Assembly: GCF_000518705.1 (NCBI RefSeq)
Contig: NZ_JAEC01000013.1
Span: 1-64,000, forward strand
Origin: Shewanella colwelliana ATCC 39565
GTDB lineage: Bacteria; Pseudomonadota; Gammaproteobacteria; Enterobacterales; Shewanellaceae
Reading direction: 5' to 3'
DNA length: 64,000 nucleotides
Shown: positions 27,002-31,184 of the stretch, piece after piece
How positions within the stretch are numbered: position 1 is the first letter of the stretch
Layout of the letters: every line of letters starts with the position of its first letter
Notes under the pieces: generated by a model
What the model was told of the DNA's origin: nothing
The model's database searches: none
The model's input: only the letters and a program-made list of their open reading frames with translations
Position numbers and translations under genes: made by a program

Positions 27002-27478
27002 ATGAATAAGGTTCCGATGACAGTTGTTGGCGCAGAGATGCTGCGCAAAGAGTTAGATTATTTAAAGTTCGATAAGCGTCCTAAGATTGCTGAAGCCATT
27101 GGTATTGCCAGAGAGCTGGGTGATTTGAAAGAGAATGCCGAATATCATGCAGCCCGCGAAGAGCAAGGCCTGTGCGAAGCTCGTGTACGTGACATCGAAG
27201 GTAAGCTGTCAAATGTGCAAATCATTGATGTGACCAAAATGGAAAACACTGGGCGTGTTATTTTTGGTACCACGGTGACCATTCTGAACTTAGATACCGA
27301 AGAGGAGTCAACCTACCGTATTGTGGGAGAAGATGAAGCTAACATCAAAGAGAACTTACTGTCAGTGAGCTCGCCTATTGCGCGTGGTTTAGTGGGTAAA
27401 AGCTTAGACGATGAAATCTCTATCACCACTCCTGGCGGTACCAGTGATTTTGAAATCATTAAAGTTGAGTACATCTAA
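27002..27478 (+). CDS. greA: Transcription elongation factor GreA
   Basis: Binds the RNA polymerase secondary channel and stimulates transcript cleavage in backtracked complexes. From ATG 27002 it is 158 residues, the family length; the open frame back to 26942 adds 20 residues unlike GreA and is rejected. The N-terminal coiled coil carries the catalytic tip [18 protein letters not shown] (acidic D and E); the C-terminal FKBP-like domain starts at about 80. The AAGGAG site at about 26985 is somewhat far (12 bases) from this ATG. Confidence 0.96.
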
Positions 27479-27498
27479 TTTCATCGTTTGATGTCCAT

Positions 27499-27525
27499 AA
27501 AAACCGCTTTATAGCGGTTTTTTTA
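27499..27525 (+). terminator. Intrinsic terminator of greA
   Basis: AAACCGCT/AGCGGTTT stem around a short tta loop, then a T-run. Confidence 0.92.
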
Positions 27526-27631
27526 TGTTTGTTTGATATTAAAGCTCATAACAGCGTGATTAATGGTTTTAATCCTTAGAGTGCTGTGTTTATATATCAG
27601 CGTAAAGTAATGTAGTGAGTAAGGTGGTTTA

Positions 27632-28156
27632 GTGCGATTATTGTGGTTGGTAGGATCTATTTTGTTGCTCATTGGGGGACTCTGTTTGTCACCTATGTCA
27701 GCAAGTGCGTCTGCCATAAACCAACAGCATACGCTGATCGCTGGGAACAATTTGAATGCTGAGGGTCAGCCACTATCTGTTCAAAGTGCTAAGGTCGATA
27801 CTGCCACAATGTTTAACATCATGGAGTCATCACTAAAGACGTCACTGGATACAGAAAGTGATGTTCAAGGTCGGCATCTGCAACACAAAGAGAGCAAGAG
27901 CTCAGAATATGCGCCGCTGGTGTCGCAACGATTAATCAGCTTCGCACAGTATGAACGTCTGCATAGTCGGCCTGACTACCAACTGGTATTTGAATTTATC
28001 TCCCCACCAATTCCTTCATTAACCGTGGGCTATCGTATGGATTTTAAACCTGCCGTCGATTGGCAGCTGCATATTGATGGCTCATCTTTTAGGCTTTCTG
28101 CATGGAAAGAATCTAATCTTCTTTACCGTTTATCTCATACCCGCTCCGCTAGCTAA
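27632..28156 (+). CDS. VemP-like secreted translation-arrest peptide controlling secD2-secF2
   Basis: 174 residues, GTG start (27632) with AAGGTGG (27621-27627) upstream. A clear Sec signal peptide (LLWLVGSILLLIGGLCL, cleavage near ASA, about 27) is followed by a low-complexity body. The C-terminus FRLSAWKESNLLYRLS (about 153-168, Trp158) closely matches the VemP arrest motif of Vibrio alginolyticus, which I recall as HRISGWKETNAMYVAL. In VemP the stall is about 13 residues after that Trp and three before the stop; the same offset here gives Arg171, also three before the end. Like vemP, it lies directly upstream of a second secD-secF pair. In Vibrio, active export pulls on the chain and relieves arrest; poor export prolongs it and opens secD2 translation. 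Function here is inferred from motif and position. Confidence 0.82.
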   Translation: MRLLWLVGSILLLIGGLCLSPMSASASAINQQHTLIAGNNLNAEGQPLSVQSAKVDTATMFNIMESSLKTSLDTESDVQGRHLQHKESKSSEYAPLVSQRLISFAQYERLHSRPDYQLVFEFISPPIPSLTVGYRMDFKPAVDWQLHIDGSSFRLSAWKESNLLYRLSHTRSAS

Positions 28157-28431
28157 ATACTATTAAGCCCTTTCAGGCTTATCAATCGAGAACAGTCCAT
28201 TCCCGCTTTATCTGGTGGGTCAATACAGCGTGCTTATCTTTAGCACCTGTGAGTTTGTTCTAGCGCTTATCATTTACCTATAAATCGTTACAGGTTATCC
28301 GCGCTAAGGCACTGTTCTCGACATTTTAGACGGCAACGCAGATTAGCGATTAACCCACCTTCTAGGGGCGGTTTTTCACTGTTCAGTCGTCGACATTTTG
28401 CGTATTTAGTGAAGATAAAGAGCAAAGAAGT
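28157..28431 (+). promoter_or_regulatory. Structured intergenic RNA between the arrest peptide and secD2
   Basis: 275 bases with nested complementarity. A perfect ten-base stem CGAGAACAGT/ACTGTTCTCG (28187-28196 with 28311-28320) encloses GTGCT/AGCAC (28230-28246) and TAGCGC/GCGCTA (28261-28266 with 28301-28306). A TAAGCC/GGCTTA hairpin (28164-28181) sits just past the arrest-peptide stop, within reach of a stalled ribosome. GGTGGGT (28214-28220) can also pair with ACCCACC (28353-28359). The purine-rich secD2 site AAAGAAG (28424-28430) is complementary to CTTCTTT inside the arrest-motif codons (28118-28124). This fits a switch in which a stalled ribosome changes access to secD2; the actual fold is not established. 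Confidence 0.6.
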
Positions 28432-30246
28432 ATGAGAAAACAAAATAAAGCAACCCTGTTGAACCACTACAGTGTATGGAAGTATGTGCTGTTAGTTGTC
28501 ACGATCATCATTATGTTATTGAGTGCCTTACCGACATTTTATGGTGAAGATGCAGCCATTCAAGTTAGTAAAGAGGCCGGGCTCAAGCTCGATCCTTTGA
28601 TGTTGCACCAACGGCTCATTTCCGCTGGGATTGAAGTTAAGCGTATTGATCAAACAATGGGAAAAACCTTGGTCGTGCTCACTGATAGCTCACAGCAGGC
28701 TCAACTTAAATCCCTGCTAGTTGAGCAAGTTAAAACCCCATCCGAGGTCACCCTTACACTAGCACCGTCCGCTCCTAATTGGCTGCTGTCGTTAGGTTTT
28801 TCTCCAATTAAACTAGGCTTAGATTTACGTGGTGGTGTGCAGTTTTTACTCGATGTTGAGATCGATCCTGTGTATCAATTGCACAACAATACGTTTGTCG
28901 AGGCAACTCGACAATTTGTGCGTGATGAGTCTCTCGTTGGAATAACTGTTCAACCTCAGGCTGGCGGGAGTGTACAAATCTCTGCCTCAGACTCGAGGCA
29001 ACGCCAAAAGTTGCGTCAGTTTATTGCGGCGCAATATCCACATTGGCAAGTAACCAACTCGGGGCTCAATGCACTCGGGGTTAATCTGTCTGATAGCGAA
29101 AAAGTCAATATTCGAGATCTGACGGTCAAGCAAAACCTGCAGATAATGCGCAGCCGTATAGAACAGCTAGGCATTACCGAAGCGCTCGTTCAGCGCCAAG
29201 GAGAGCAACGCATTCGTATTGAGTTGCCAGGCGTCCAAGACCCCGCTGCGGCTAAGTCAGTTATTGGGGCGACAGCAAGCTTAGCGTTTTATCAGGTGAT
29301 GCAACCGGGCGCGCTGAATTCCAAAGTATTGGACAGCGAAAAAGATGGACCAGTATCGGTCTCACGACGGGCGGTGCTAGGCGGAGAACATATTGTTGAT
29401 GCCAGAGCACAGCTTGGCGAGATGGGGTTAGCGGAGGTTGTGATTCATCTCGATAGAAAAGGTGGAAAAATCATGTCAGGTTTTTCACGTGACAATATCG
29501 GTAAACCGATGGCGACCTCTTATAGCGAATACAGTCGCGATGATAAAGGCAAAATAAGTCAATCTACCGAGGTGATCAGTGTGGCTACGATTCGTTCTCA
29601 GCTCGGTGACCGTTTCAGTATCACCGGAGTGGGGGACTATGCCAGTGCGCAACAGCTTGCGTTGCTGCTGCGGGCAGGTTCGATGACTGCACCTGTTACC
29701 ATCGCTGAAGAGAGGACTATTGGCCCCAGTTTAGGAGAGGAAAATATTGCTAATGGTTTTTCGGCGCTGGCGTTAGGAGTGGCCTTCACTTTGCTTTTTA
29801 TGGGGCTTTGGTATCGCCGCTTAGGTTGGATAGCGAATGTGGCGCTTATTTCTAACATGGTGGTGTTGTTCGGATTATTAGCCCTGATACCAGGAGCTGT
29901 ATTGACCTTACCTGGTATTGCAGGGTTGGTGTTAACTGTTGGCATGGCGGTTGATACTAATGTGCTTATCTTTGAGCGGATTAAAGACAAAATCAAGGAG
30001 GGCAGGAGCTTCGCTCACGCCATTGAACGCGGGTTCGACAGTGCTCTATCGACCATTGTCGATGCAAATTTCACCACGATGATCACCGCTATAGTGCTGT
30101 ATTCCATTGGTAATGGTCCGATACAAGGTTTCGCATTGACCTTAGGCCTTGGTTTATTAACTAGTATGTTTACGGGGATTTTTGCTTCTAGAGCTTTAGT
30201 GAATTGGGTATATGGCCGCGATTTTCGCCGCGATGTGAGGGTATAA
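28432..30246 (+). CDS. secD: Protein translocase subunit SecD, second paralogue
   Basis: Inner-membrane partner of SecYEG that uses the ion gradient to pull exported proteins out of the channel. 604 residues: TM1 (about 17-35), a large periplasmic domain beginning with LGLDLRGGVQFLLDVE, and five C-terminal helices with the ion-relay Asp508 in GMAVDTNVLIFERI. The usual yajC and tgt neighbours are absent, and an arrest-peptide gene precedes it. It is therefore probably the regulated second copy (SecD2), assuming a housekeeping copy exists elsewhere. The ribosome binding site is weak, which suits translational control. secF begins one base after its stop. Confidence 0.93.
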   Translation: MRKQNKATLLNHYSVWKYVLLVVTIIIMLLSALPTFYGEDAAIQVSKEAGLKLDPLMLHQRLISAGIEVKRIDQTMGKTLVVLTDSSQQAQLKSLLVEQVKTPSEVTLTLAPSAPNWLLSLGFSPIKLGLDLRGGVQFLLDVEIDPVYQLHNNTFVEATRQFVRDESLVGITVQPQAGGSVQISASDSRQRQKLRQFIAAQYPHWQVTNSGLNALGVNLSDSEKVNIRDLTVKQNLQIMRSRIEQLGITEALVQRQGEQRIRIELPGVQDPAAAKSVIGATASLAFYQVMQPGALNSKVLDSEKDGPVSVSRRAVLGGEHIVDARAQLGEMGLAEVVIHLDRKGGKIMSGFSRDNIGKPMATSYSEYSRDDKGKISQSTEVISVATIRSQLGDRFSITGVGDYASAQQLALLLRAGSMTAPVTIAEERTIGPSLGEENIANGFSALALGVAFTLLFMGLWYRRLGWIANVALISNMVVLFGLLALIPGAVLTLPGIAGLVLTVGMAVDTNVLIFERIKDKIKEGRSFAHAIERGFDSALSTIVDANFTTMITAIVLYSIGNGPIQGFALTLGLGLLTSMFTGIFASRALVNWVYGRDFRRDVRV

Positions 30247-30247
30247 G

Positions 30248-31147
30248 ATGAACGTAATAAAAATGAGCAAGTTAACCAAGGCCCGTTACCTGTCGAGTGT
30301 ATTATCGCTAATGATTATCATCTCATCGATAGGTATTATCTTTAGTAATGGCTTCAATTGGGGATTAGATTTCACTGGTGGTGTGGTAACAGAAGTGCGG
30401 CTGGACAGCCATATTAAAGCGACTGAATTGAGTGAACTGTTAGCACAGCACTCTGAACAGGAAGTAAGTGTCATCTCTGCCGGTGAGTCGGGTCGTTGGG
30501 TATTGAGATACAGCCAGGTTGATGCGAAGTCGAGTACGGATATTGTTAGTGTACTTGCGCCGTTAAGTGGCAATGTCGAAGTGCTTAATTCCAGTATTGT
30601 CGGACCGCAAATTGGTCAAGAGCTTGCAGAGCAAGGGGGATTAGCATTACTGGTTGCTATGCTATGTGTTCTAGGATACTTAAGTTTTCGCTTTGAATGG
30701 CGTTTAGCGAGTGGGGCATTACTTGCTTTGTTTCACGATGTGGTCTTTGTTTTGGCGTTTTTCTCTTTGATGCAAATGGAGTTTAATTTGACCATATTGG
30801 CGGCAGTGTTAGCCATATTGGGATATTCGCTGAATGACTCAATTGTGATTGCTGACAGGATCCGAGAACTATTGATAGCAAAACCGAAAATGGCTGTTGA
30901 TGAAGTATGCAGTGCGGCGGTGAAAGCAACGTTTTCACGCACTATGGTTACCAGCGGCACGACATTAATTACCGTTGCTGCGCTGTGGGGGATGGGTGGT
31001 GTTCCCTTAGAGGGTTTTTCTATCGCAATGTTCCTTGGAATAATGATTGGCACAATATCATCTATTTCGGTGGGAACGTGTTTACCGGAACTATTGAAGG
31101 TGAAAGCCGAACATTATCAATTAGCACCGATTAGCCAAACGCCATAA
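30248..31147 (+). CDS. secF: Protein translocase subunit SecF, second paralogue
   Basis: Pairs with the adjacent SecD. 299 residues with an N-terminal helix, the periplasmic P4 domain starting at NWGLDFTGGVVTEVRL, and five C-terminal helices. The conserved ion-path Asp197 is in GYSLNDSIVIADRIRE. Somewhat shorter than E. coli SecF. Whether this pair uses protons or sodium cannot be read from the sequence; in Vibrio the VemP-controlled pair is thought to be the low-sodium version. Confidence 0.93.
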   Translation: MNVIKMSKLTKARYLSSVLSLMIIISSIGIIFSNGFNWGLDFTGGVVTEVRLDSHIKATELSELLAQHSEQEVSVISAGESGRWVLRYSQVDAKSSTDIVSVLAPLSGNVEVLNSSIVGPQIGQELAEQGGLALLVAMLCVLGYLSFRFEWRLASGALLALFHDVVFVLAFFSLMQMEFNLTILAAVLAILGYSLNDSIVIADRIRELLIAKPKMAVDEVCSAAVKATFSRTMVTSGTTLITVAALWGMGGVPLEGFSIAMFLGIMIGTISSISVGTCLPELLKVKAEHYQLAPISQTP

Positions 31148-31153
31148 TAAAAA

Positions 31154-31184
31154 AGAGCCGCTGTAGATACAGCGGCTCTTTTTA
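31154..31184. terminator. Bidirectional terminator between secF2 and yhbY
   Basis: Perfect 11-base stem AGAGCCGCTGT/ACAGCGGCTCT with a four-base loop, A-run on one side and T-run on the other. It serves the convergent secF2 and yhbY. Confidence 0.94.

What the first reader, a model, noticed from the sequence alone, without database searches (positions are those of the whole stretch)
27632..28156. A VemP-like translation-arrest peptide in front of secD2-secF2
The 174-residue product has a Sec signal peptide and ends with FRLSAWKESNLLYRLS, close to the Vibrio VemP arrest motif (recalled HRISGWKETNAMYVAL), and lies immediately upstream of a stand-alone SecD-SecF pair, exactly as vemP does. The distance from the conserved Trp (158) to the C-terminus matches VemP. 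This predicts that export force relieves a stall and that poor export induces the second SecDF. The known examples I recall are Vibrio and relatives; whether the Shewanella form has been studied I cannot say.
Basis: partly seen in the sequence, partly recalled or inferred. Interest (0 to 1): 0.93.

Follow-up and report, generated by a model that had tools for sequence, protein, structure and literature searches.

The report
VemP-type export-stress arrest sensor in Shewanella
A short gene in this Shewanella genome carries the same C-terminal signature as VemP, the Vibrio protein that stalls its own ribosome, and lies in front of a second SecD-SecF pair; it likely stalls when protein export is weak and would thereby switch that spare export motor on.

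Summary
The ORF at 27632-28156 has a signal-peptide-like N-terminus and ends RLSAWKESNLLY plus 9 residues; secD2-secF2 follow 275 nt downstream. It is a VemP homologue: profile comparison with Vibrio VemP gives 97.8%, Trp-to-C-terminus is 16 residues in both, and a conserved Arg lies 58 residues before that Trp in both. With the motif cut off, the profiles still align that Arg. In Shewanella, 89 of 92 secD2-bearing genomes have the motif ORF upstream of secD2 (two of the other three are contig ends); none of 36 secD1-only genomes has a hit. The arrest core is the best conserved part. Stalling is untested.

VemP-type ORFs also precede DedA and S41-peptidase genes, including in Serratia relatives; four such genomes have one secD only. 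VemP is a known kind; Shewanella may already be in an unread supplement.

The parts
27620..27624 (+). Shine-Dalgarno TAAGG of the vemP-like ORF
   Evidence: read from sequence; scored
27632..28156 (+). vemP-like ORF, 174 aa, GTG start, TAA stop
27632..27712 (+). signal-peptide-like N-terminus, residues 1-27 (hydrophobic core, SASA before the likely cleavage site; by eye, no SignalP run)
27911..27931 (+). APLVSQR, residues 94-100: counterpart of VemP short hydrophobic segment + Arg85 (R100 = W158-58)
   Evidence: VemP elements from passages of PMC11470409 and PMC7793623
28091..28126 (+). arrest motif R154-L-S-A-W158-K-E-S-N162-L-L-Y165
28142..28144 (+). predicted P-site codon of the stalled ribosome (R171 = W+13, by analogy with VemP Q156); inferred
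28128..28146 (+). vemP side of the predicted long-range helix that covers the secD2 start region; lies inside the predicted stalled-ribosome footprint (28127-28157)
28420..28441 (+). secD2 side of that helix: Shine-Dalgarno-like GAGC and AUG
28432..30246 (+). secD2 (SecD, 604 aa)
30248..31147 (+). secF2 (SecF, 299 aa)
27499..27522 (+). terminator-like hairpin after greA, before vemP (operon border)
31160..31176 (+). terminator-like hairpin after secF2 (operon border)

Best explanation
The 174-codon gene at 27632-28156 is a homologue of the Vibrio secretion monitor VemP, and it is predicted to stall its own ribosome near codon 171 when export is weak, which would uncover the secD2 start site and raise SecD2-SecF2. 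Shown here by computation: homology, gene order, co-occurrence with secD2, conservation of the arrest core and of an Arg element, and, as a trend across the family, codon choice that favours pairing between the stall-site codons and the secD2 start. Inferred: with active export (through SecD1-SecF1) the Sec pull releases the stall, the ribosome finishes, and vemP codons 166-172 pair again with the secD2 Shine-Dalgarno and AUG, keeping secD2 off. Inferred: when export slows, the parked ribosome occupies those codons and secD2 can be read. That the trigger is low Na+, as in Vibrio, is only an analogy.
For: Fits the published VemP-class consensus RxxxWKxxNxxY (passage of PMC10987492). Profile comparison of 25 Shewanella ORFs with 7 Vibrio ORFs: probability 97.8, E 1.1e-12; with the motif removed still 66%, aligning R100 with R85, against 0.4% for the reversed profile (a shorter cut without the N-terminus aligns the same Arg at only 6%). 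Canonical VemP of 159, 159 and 160 aa found in L319, L315 and L316; in all three Arg at W-58 and 16 residues from W to the end, as in the window. 89 of 92 Shewanella genomes with secD2 have the motif ORF upstream of secD2; 0 of 36 secD1-only genomes have a hit. Seven VemP-linked SecD2 proteins form one clade, support 1.000, apart from eleven SecD1. Stall-site/secD2-start pairing: Shewanella 7.4 expected pairs against 3.7 in synonymous controls, 20 per locus (35 of 48 loci above, p=1.3e-6); other genera 6.1 against 3.8 (40 of 59, p=1.6e-4).
Against: No stall has been shown. Of the VemP tunnel contacts named in the passages of PMC5449182, R139, W143, K144 and Y150 have counterparts, but N154 is Gln or His in 89 of 89 Shewanella ORFs, no Trp stands at the W124 position (a Trp is at W-14 instead), and the H133 position is His in 7 of 89. 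17 of 89 ORFs end at W+13, where the A-site codon would be the stop. VemP's (hydrophilic)xP element has no counterpart at the same distance. For the window alone the pairing is only suggestive: 23 of 400 synonymous controls do as well, and with one stalled ribosome the model re-pairs the secD2 start with 28081-28097 (mean unpaired fraction 0.44 free, 0.36 stalled, 0.41 with one and 0.48 with two trailing ribosomes). One secD2 genome (G124, L083) has no motif ORF upstream. Related loci are not independent, so the p-values are too small.
Confidence: 0.86

Rival explanations
1. It is an arrest peptide, but the stall happens elsewhere or otherwise than in VemP: at W+12 or at the stop codon (termination stall), with a different silencing of the peptidyl-transferase centre.
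For: PTC-proximal residues differ from VemP and vary between Shewanella clades (RFSQ, VHAHTC, SHHHIR); 17 of 89 ORFs end at W+13; N154, W124 and H133 of VemP are not kept in place.
Against: R139, W143, K144, N147 and Y150 of VemP have counterparts in at least 84 of 89 ORFs (Tyr or Phe counted for Y150), and the W-to-end distance is 13-16 in 85 of 89.
Confidence: 0.2
2. The arrest peptide acts, but secD2 is controlled mainly at the level of transcription or by plain translational coupling rather than by unmasking of a paired start.
For: The window model does not open the secD2 start when one ribosome is parked.
Against: No + strand terminator-like site between vemP and secD2; family-wide excess of pairing with the secD2 start over synonymous controls; in the DedA- and S41-linked loci the same measure is not above the control mean in 9 of 11, so it is not high for every such ORF. 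For another arrest peptide, of Alteromonas, unmasking was shown in print (PMC10987492, passages).
Confidence: 0.13
3. It is an ordinary exported protein of unknown function that only happens to carry the motif.
For: Named hypothetical, uncharacterized or orphan protein where a source names it; no Pfam or NCBIfam family.
Against: The best conserved part is the C-terminal arrest core; close linkage to secD2; Vibrio VemP has no family either (L176: Pfam and NCBIfam; L319: NCBIfam).
Confidence: 0.04

Closest known systems
VemP of Vibrio alginolyticus (secretion monitor upstream of secD2-secF2)
   Same: Gene order, export-signal-like N-terminus, RxSxWKxxNxxY near the end, 16 residues from Trp to C-terminus, Arg 58 residues before the Trp after a short hydrophobic stretch, SecD2 of the same clade (compared with unnamed Vibrio genomes whose VemP fits the printed residue numbers).
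   Different: PTC-proximal segment RLSHTR instead of VALNSQ (N154 position is His); a Trp at W-14, where L315 and L316 have one at W-19; no (hydrophilic)xP element at the same place; 275-nt gap instead of 164-168 in L315, L316 and L319; GTG start. The neighbouring genes of the Vibrio operon were not compared.
VemP class of Fujiwara et al. 2024 (PMC10987492; 339 genomes, consensus RxxxWKxxNxxY)
   Same: The window fits the stated consensus and, as far as tested, the search criteria of that paper.
   Different: Which taxa the 339 genomes are is in supplements that could not be read here; the passages on VemP name Vibrio only, and the word Shewanella does not occur in the main text.
uDF_RQH_Enterobacterales and the RAPP-type arrest peptides upstream of secDF (ApdA, ApdP)
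   Same: Small exported uORF upstream of secDF; for one of them arrest opens the secDF start (passages).
   Different: No RAPP, RGPP or RAGP sequence in the window protein.
SecM (upstream of secA)
   Same: Export-released arrest peptide controlling a Sec motor.
   Different: Different motif and different target gene.

Membership tests
VemP | small uORF directly upstream of a second secD-secF pair | tested here: met
VemP | N-terminal Sec signal | tested here: inconclusive
   hydrophobic N-terminus with SASA, by eye and by a hydropathy script; no signal-peptide predictor was available
VemP | C-terminal RxxxWKxxNxxY motif | tested here: met
   exact match; conserved in 89 Shewanella ORFs
VemP | motif at VemP distance from the C-terminus | tested here: met
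   16 residues in window and in L315, L316, L319
VemP | Arg85 with short hydrophobic segment in the Sec-contacting region | tested here: met
   R100 at W-58, aligned by profile without the motif; Arg at exactly W-58 in 36 of 48 non-redundant Shewanella ORFs; hydrophobic stretch APLV is weaker than LALF
VemP | (hydrophilic)xP element before the hydrophobic segment | tested here: not met
   no such element at the VemP position; an accessory element, not used by PMC10987492 to define the class
VemP | PTC-proximal V-A-L-N-x-Q with Q156 in the P site | tested here: not met
   RLSHTR here; varies inside the wider family too, and is not part of the class consensus RxxxWKxxNxxY
VemP | sequence homology beyond the motif | tested here: met
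   hhalign 66% without motif, reversed control 0.4%; only 6% when the N-terminal part is cut off as well
VemP | elongation arrest released by export; induction of secD2 | not testable with these tools
   needs translation assays
RAPP/RQH arrest peptides | RAPP-like sequence near the C-terminus | tested here: not met
   absent from the sequence

The most novel reading that the evidence does not exclude
The VemP arrest module is an old, portable envelope sensor, not a SecDF accessory of Vibrio. In secD2 operons across many marine genera its stall-site codons double as an antisense lock on the secD2 start. In other lineages the same arrest module has been rewired to different genes: to a DedA protein in Serratia relatives, and to S41 peptidases in others, in genomes that have no second secD. 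It would then report export or insertion force to several envelope functions.
Probability: 0.45. Interest if true: 0.82.

Novelty: new member of a known kind. Interest (0 to 1): 0.56.

Why it matters
It extends the VemP system, described in a 2024 paper as specifically conserved among Vibrio species (PMC11470409, passage), to Shewanella and other marine genera. That gives a natural series of PTC-proximal variants (VALN, RFSQ, VHAHTC, SHHHIR) around one fixed tunnel motif, so that the question which residues silence the peptidyl-transferase centre becomes testable by comparison. The DedA- and S41-linked copies would be export sensors that regulate non-Sec genes; the searches listed no paper on the DedA case, and the S41 case was not searched for.

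Tried and rejected
Sequence search of the PDB with the single protein found nothing useful. Rfam on 27450-28500 gave two matches, both below the families' gathering scores. No + strand promoter-like site was found before vemP. A repeat-element origin of the vemP-secD2 gap: a 23-base piece of it occurs once in the genome. The whole-genome motif pattern is no better than its reversed control, so I did not use motif hits alone. The DedA- and S41-linked loci were tested for the same stall-site/start pairing: native not above the control mean in 9 of 11. The stalled-ribosome model opens the secD2 start on average over the family (0.39 to 0.47 in Shewanella, 27 of 48 loci by more than 0.05; 0.37 to 0.47 elsewhere, 36 of 59) but not in the window. 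Foreign-partner and slid-window controls point the same way but weakly: own duplex -10.3 against -8.1 kcal/mol in Shewanella and -9.35 against -7.64 elsewhere, window in the best 13%; stall footprint the best window in 15 of 48 and 9 of 59. No structure was predicted: a nascent chain in the tunnel is not what the predictor models.

Full report
What is there. The window holds carB, greA, then three genes, vemP-like (27632-28156), secD2 (28432-30246) and secF2 (30248-31147), then yhbY on the other strand, rlmE and ftsH (carB, greA, yhbY, rlmE and ftsH recognised from the translations by recall, secD2 and secF2 by Pfam and NCBIfam). The three lie between terminator-like hairpins at 27499-27522 and 31160-31176, with no + strand terminator-like site between vemP and secD2. 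The first gene starts with GTG behind TAAGG, has a hydrophobic N-terminus and ends R154-LSAW158-KESN162-LLY165-RLSHTRSAS.

Is it more than chance? secD2-type matches are in 92 genomes by my count; 36 have one match of the strength of the window genome's own secD1 (most of their places were not listed); G054, whose two matches were not listed, is left out. Of the 92, 89 have a frame with the arrest motif upstream of secD2; eight of these were not found, seven divergent ones and one in a broken frame (L090), and two more frames are short (L040, L047). Of the three others, G097 and G111 end at a contig border and G124 (L083) is an exception: about 890 nt upstream of secD2 are held there and no motif ORF was seen. 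None of the 36 has a hit; 15 of them were also searched with the profile, without a hit. In the 89 frames W and N are invariant, K is 88, R(-4) 84, Y or F(+7) 89; a second Trp at W-14 is 84; the position of VemP N154 is Gln in 60 and His in 29; 85 of 89 end 13 to 16 residues after the Trp. In 48 non-redundant ORFs mean pairwise column identity is 0.64 for residues 154-169, 0.25 for the signal, 0.09 for 28-90, 0.40 for 91-118, 0.37 for 119-153 and 0.17 for the last five; the best other 16-residue stretch has 0.53.

Is it VemP? PMC10987492 (abstract, passages, and the introduction, search, discussion and search-method sections seen) classes as VemP 339 sequences with RxxxWKxxNxxY; the window fits exactly. 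Their VemP proteins have 159, 160 and 159 residues, and L319 bears the residues described in print at the printed numbers (Pro67, Arg85, Arg139, Trp143, Lys144, Asn147, Tyr150, Asn154; contacts from passages of PMC5449182). In them and in the window the Trp is 16 residues from the end and an Arg lies 58 residues before it. Profile comparison gives 97.8%. With the motif cut off the profiles still align SQR of the window with TQR85 of VemP at 66%, against 0.4% for a reversed profile; cutting the N-terminus too leaves the same alignment at 6%. Arg85 is the element that tunes release by the translocon (passages of PMC7793623, and of PMC11470409). Arg at exactly W-58 is found in 36 of 48 Shewanella and 29 of 59 other non-redundant ORFs. 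Differences: PTC-proximal RLSHTR for VALNSQ, no Trp at W-19 and rarely His at W-10 (7 of 89), no (hydrophilic)xP element at the VemP place.

How wide is the family? A profile of 25 Shewanella ORFs hits 90 of 394 genomes and 22 of 114 genera of the GTDB order; a mixed profile gives 90 of 394 and 21 of 114. Of 80 non-Shewanella places I fetched 75: 59 have the motif ORF with secD downstream, 12 have the motif ORF without secD in the stretch, 4 have no motif ORF, three of them with a secD match near (one search counts 76 and 60 because it includes one Shewanella locus, L109). The motif ORF is thus seen in 18 of the 22 genera. Of 78 named loci 75 have secD; the named genera among these 75 are Shewanella, Photobacterium, Aliivibrio, Vibrio, Enterovibrio, Grimontia, Motilimonas, Ferrimonas, Moritella and Psychromonas. 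VemP-linked SecD2 from seven genomes forms one clade (support 1.000) apart from eleven SecD1. PMC11470409 calls the operon specifically conserved among Vibrio species (passage); that is too narrow.

How it most likely works. Known for VemP: the stall keeps secD2 readable, export pull ends the stall. In the window the free-RNA model pairs the secD2 Shine-Dalgarno-like GAGC and the AUG (probability 0.98 or more) with vemP nucleotides in 28136-28146, inside a helix that reaches 28128; with the P site at R171 the stalled ribosome would cover them. To ask whether this is selected, I resampled synonymous codons of the ORF ends, keeping protein, gap and secD2 start (20 controls per locus). In 107 non-redundant loci (of 223) the expected pairs between start region and predicted footprint are 7.4 against 3.7 (Shewanella, 35 of 48 above control mean, Wilcoxon p=1.3e-6) and 6.1 against 3.8 (others, 40 of 59, p=1.6e-4). 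In the window it is 13.3 against 4.8, but 23 of 400 controls reach it. Blocking the footprint raises the unpaired fraction of the start from 0.39 to 0.47 and from 0.37 to 0.47 on average, but not in the window (0.44 to 0.36; 0.48 with two trailing ribosomes), where the start finds partners at 28081-28097. So the antisense lock is supported as a family trend and only suggestive for this locus.

Partner-swapped copies. Six of the twelve ORFs without secD stand before DedA-family genes and four before S41-peptidase genes, by translation; Pfam confirms two of each (L322 and L323 VTT/DedA, L320 and L321 S41). The remaining two are a contig end (L138) and a gene for an unidentified membrane protein (L147). 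Four such genomes searched (G474, G478, G404, G272) have one secD match only. Homologues of the DedA-linked ORF L163 are 39 proteins; those with an organism name are from Serratia species and one Chania. These loci do not show the start/stall-site pairing in 9 of 11 cases, so how they would act on the next gene is open. On paper searches: searches found none; two searches listed 8 of 185 and 15 of 666 papers, none of the listed ones with DedA or yqjA.

Literature limits. One search lists nine papers with both words VemP and Shewanella, none on this by title; the one that also has SecDF2 (10 of 58 listed) cites VemP in passing (passage of PMC7232310). Supplements could not be read, so Shewanella may be in the published list of 339 genomes; hence 'new member of a known kind'.

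Noticed in passing
L163, L174, L175, L155 (Serratia relatives); L171, L172 (second copies in Vibrio genomes G479, G223); L249 (Photobacterium lutimaris, DedA-like gene 451 nt on, another ORF between): VemP-type ORFs (export or membrane signal, RxxGW[KQ]xxNxx[YF] at the end) upstream of DedA-family genes; in G478 the DedA gene is followed by an mzrA-like ORF (recognised by recall).
   Followed up: partly
L165, L182 (genus g2 of the Shewanella family), L173, L177, L253 (Shewanella sp. MAG DT_112): VemP-type ORFs with R or K at W+1 upstream of S41-peptidase-like genes; G474 and G272 have a single secD match.
   Followed up: partly
L147, L240 (Vibrio sp. D404a): VemP-type ORF upstream of a gene for an unidentified membrane protein.
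   Followed up: no
L318 (G262), L314 (G178), L317 (G373): ORFs with a degenerate arrest motif (GYYESNLIYRFIHSR, LWRDANLCC, HNKQANLLY) next to DedA-like or other genes: possibly decaying or altered modules.
   Followed up: no
L077-L081, L033-L043 (Shewanella): Clade-specific ends of the arrest peptide (FVHAHTC-stop; RFLQSRDLS...); in 17 of 89 ORFs the stop codon would be in the A site of a VemP-like stall.
   Followed up: partly
window 28157-28431: The vemP-secD2 gap folds strongly (fold of 28100-28480: z -3.94) around a GAGAACAGT/ACTGTTCTC inverted repeat; gap length varies from 62 to 632 nt in 89 Shewanella loci.
   Followed up: partly
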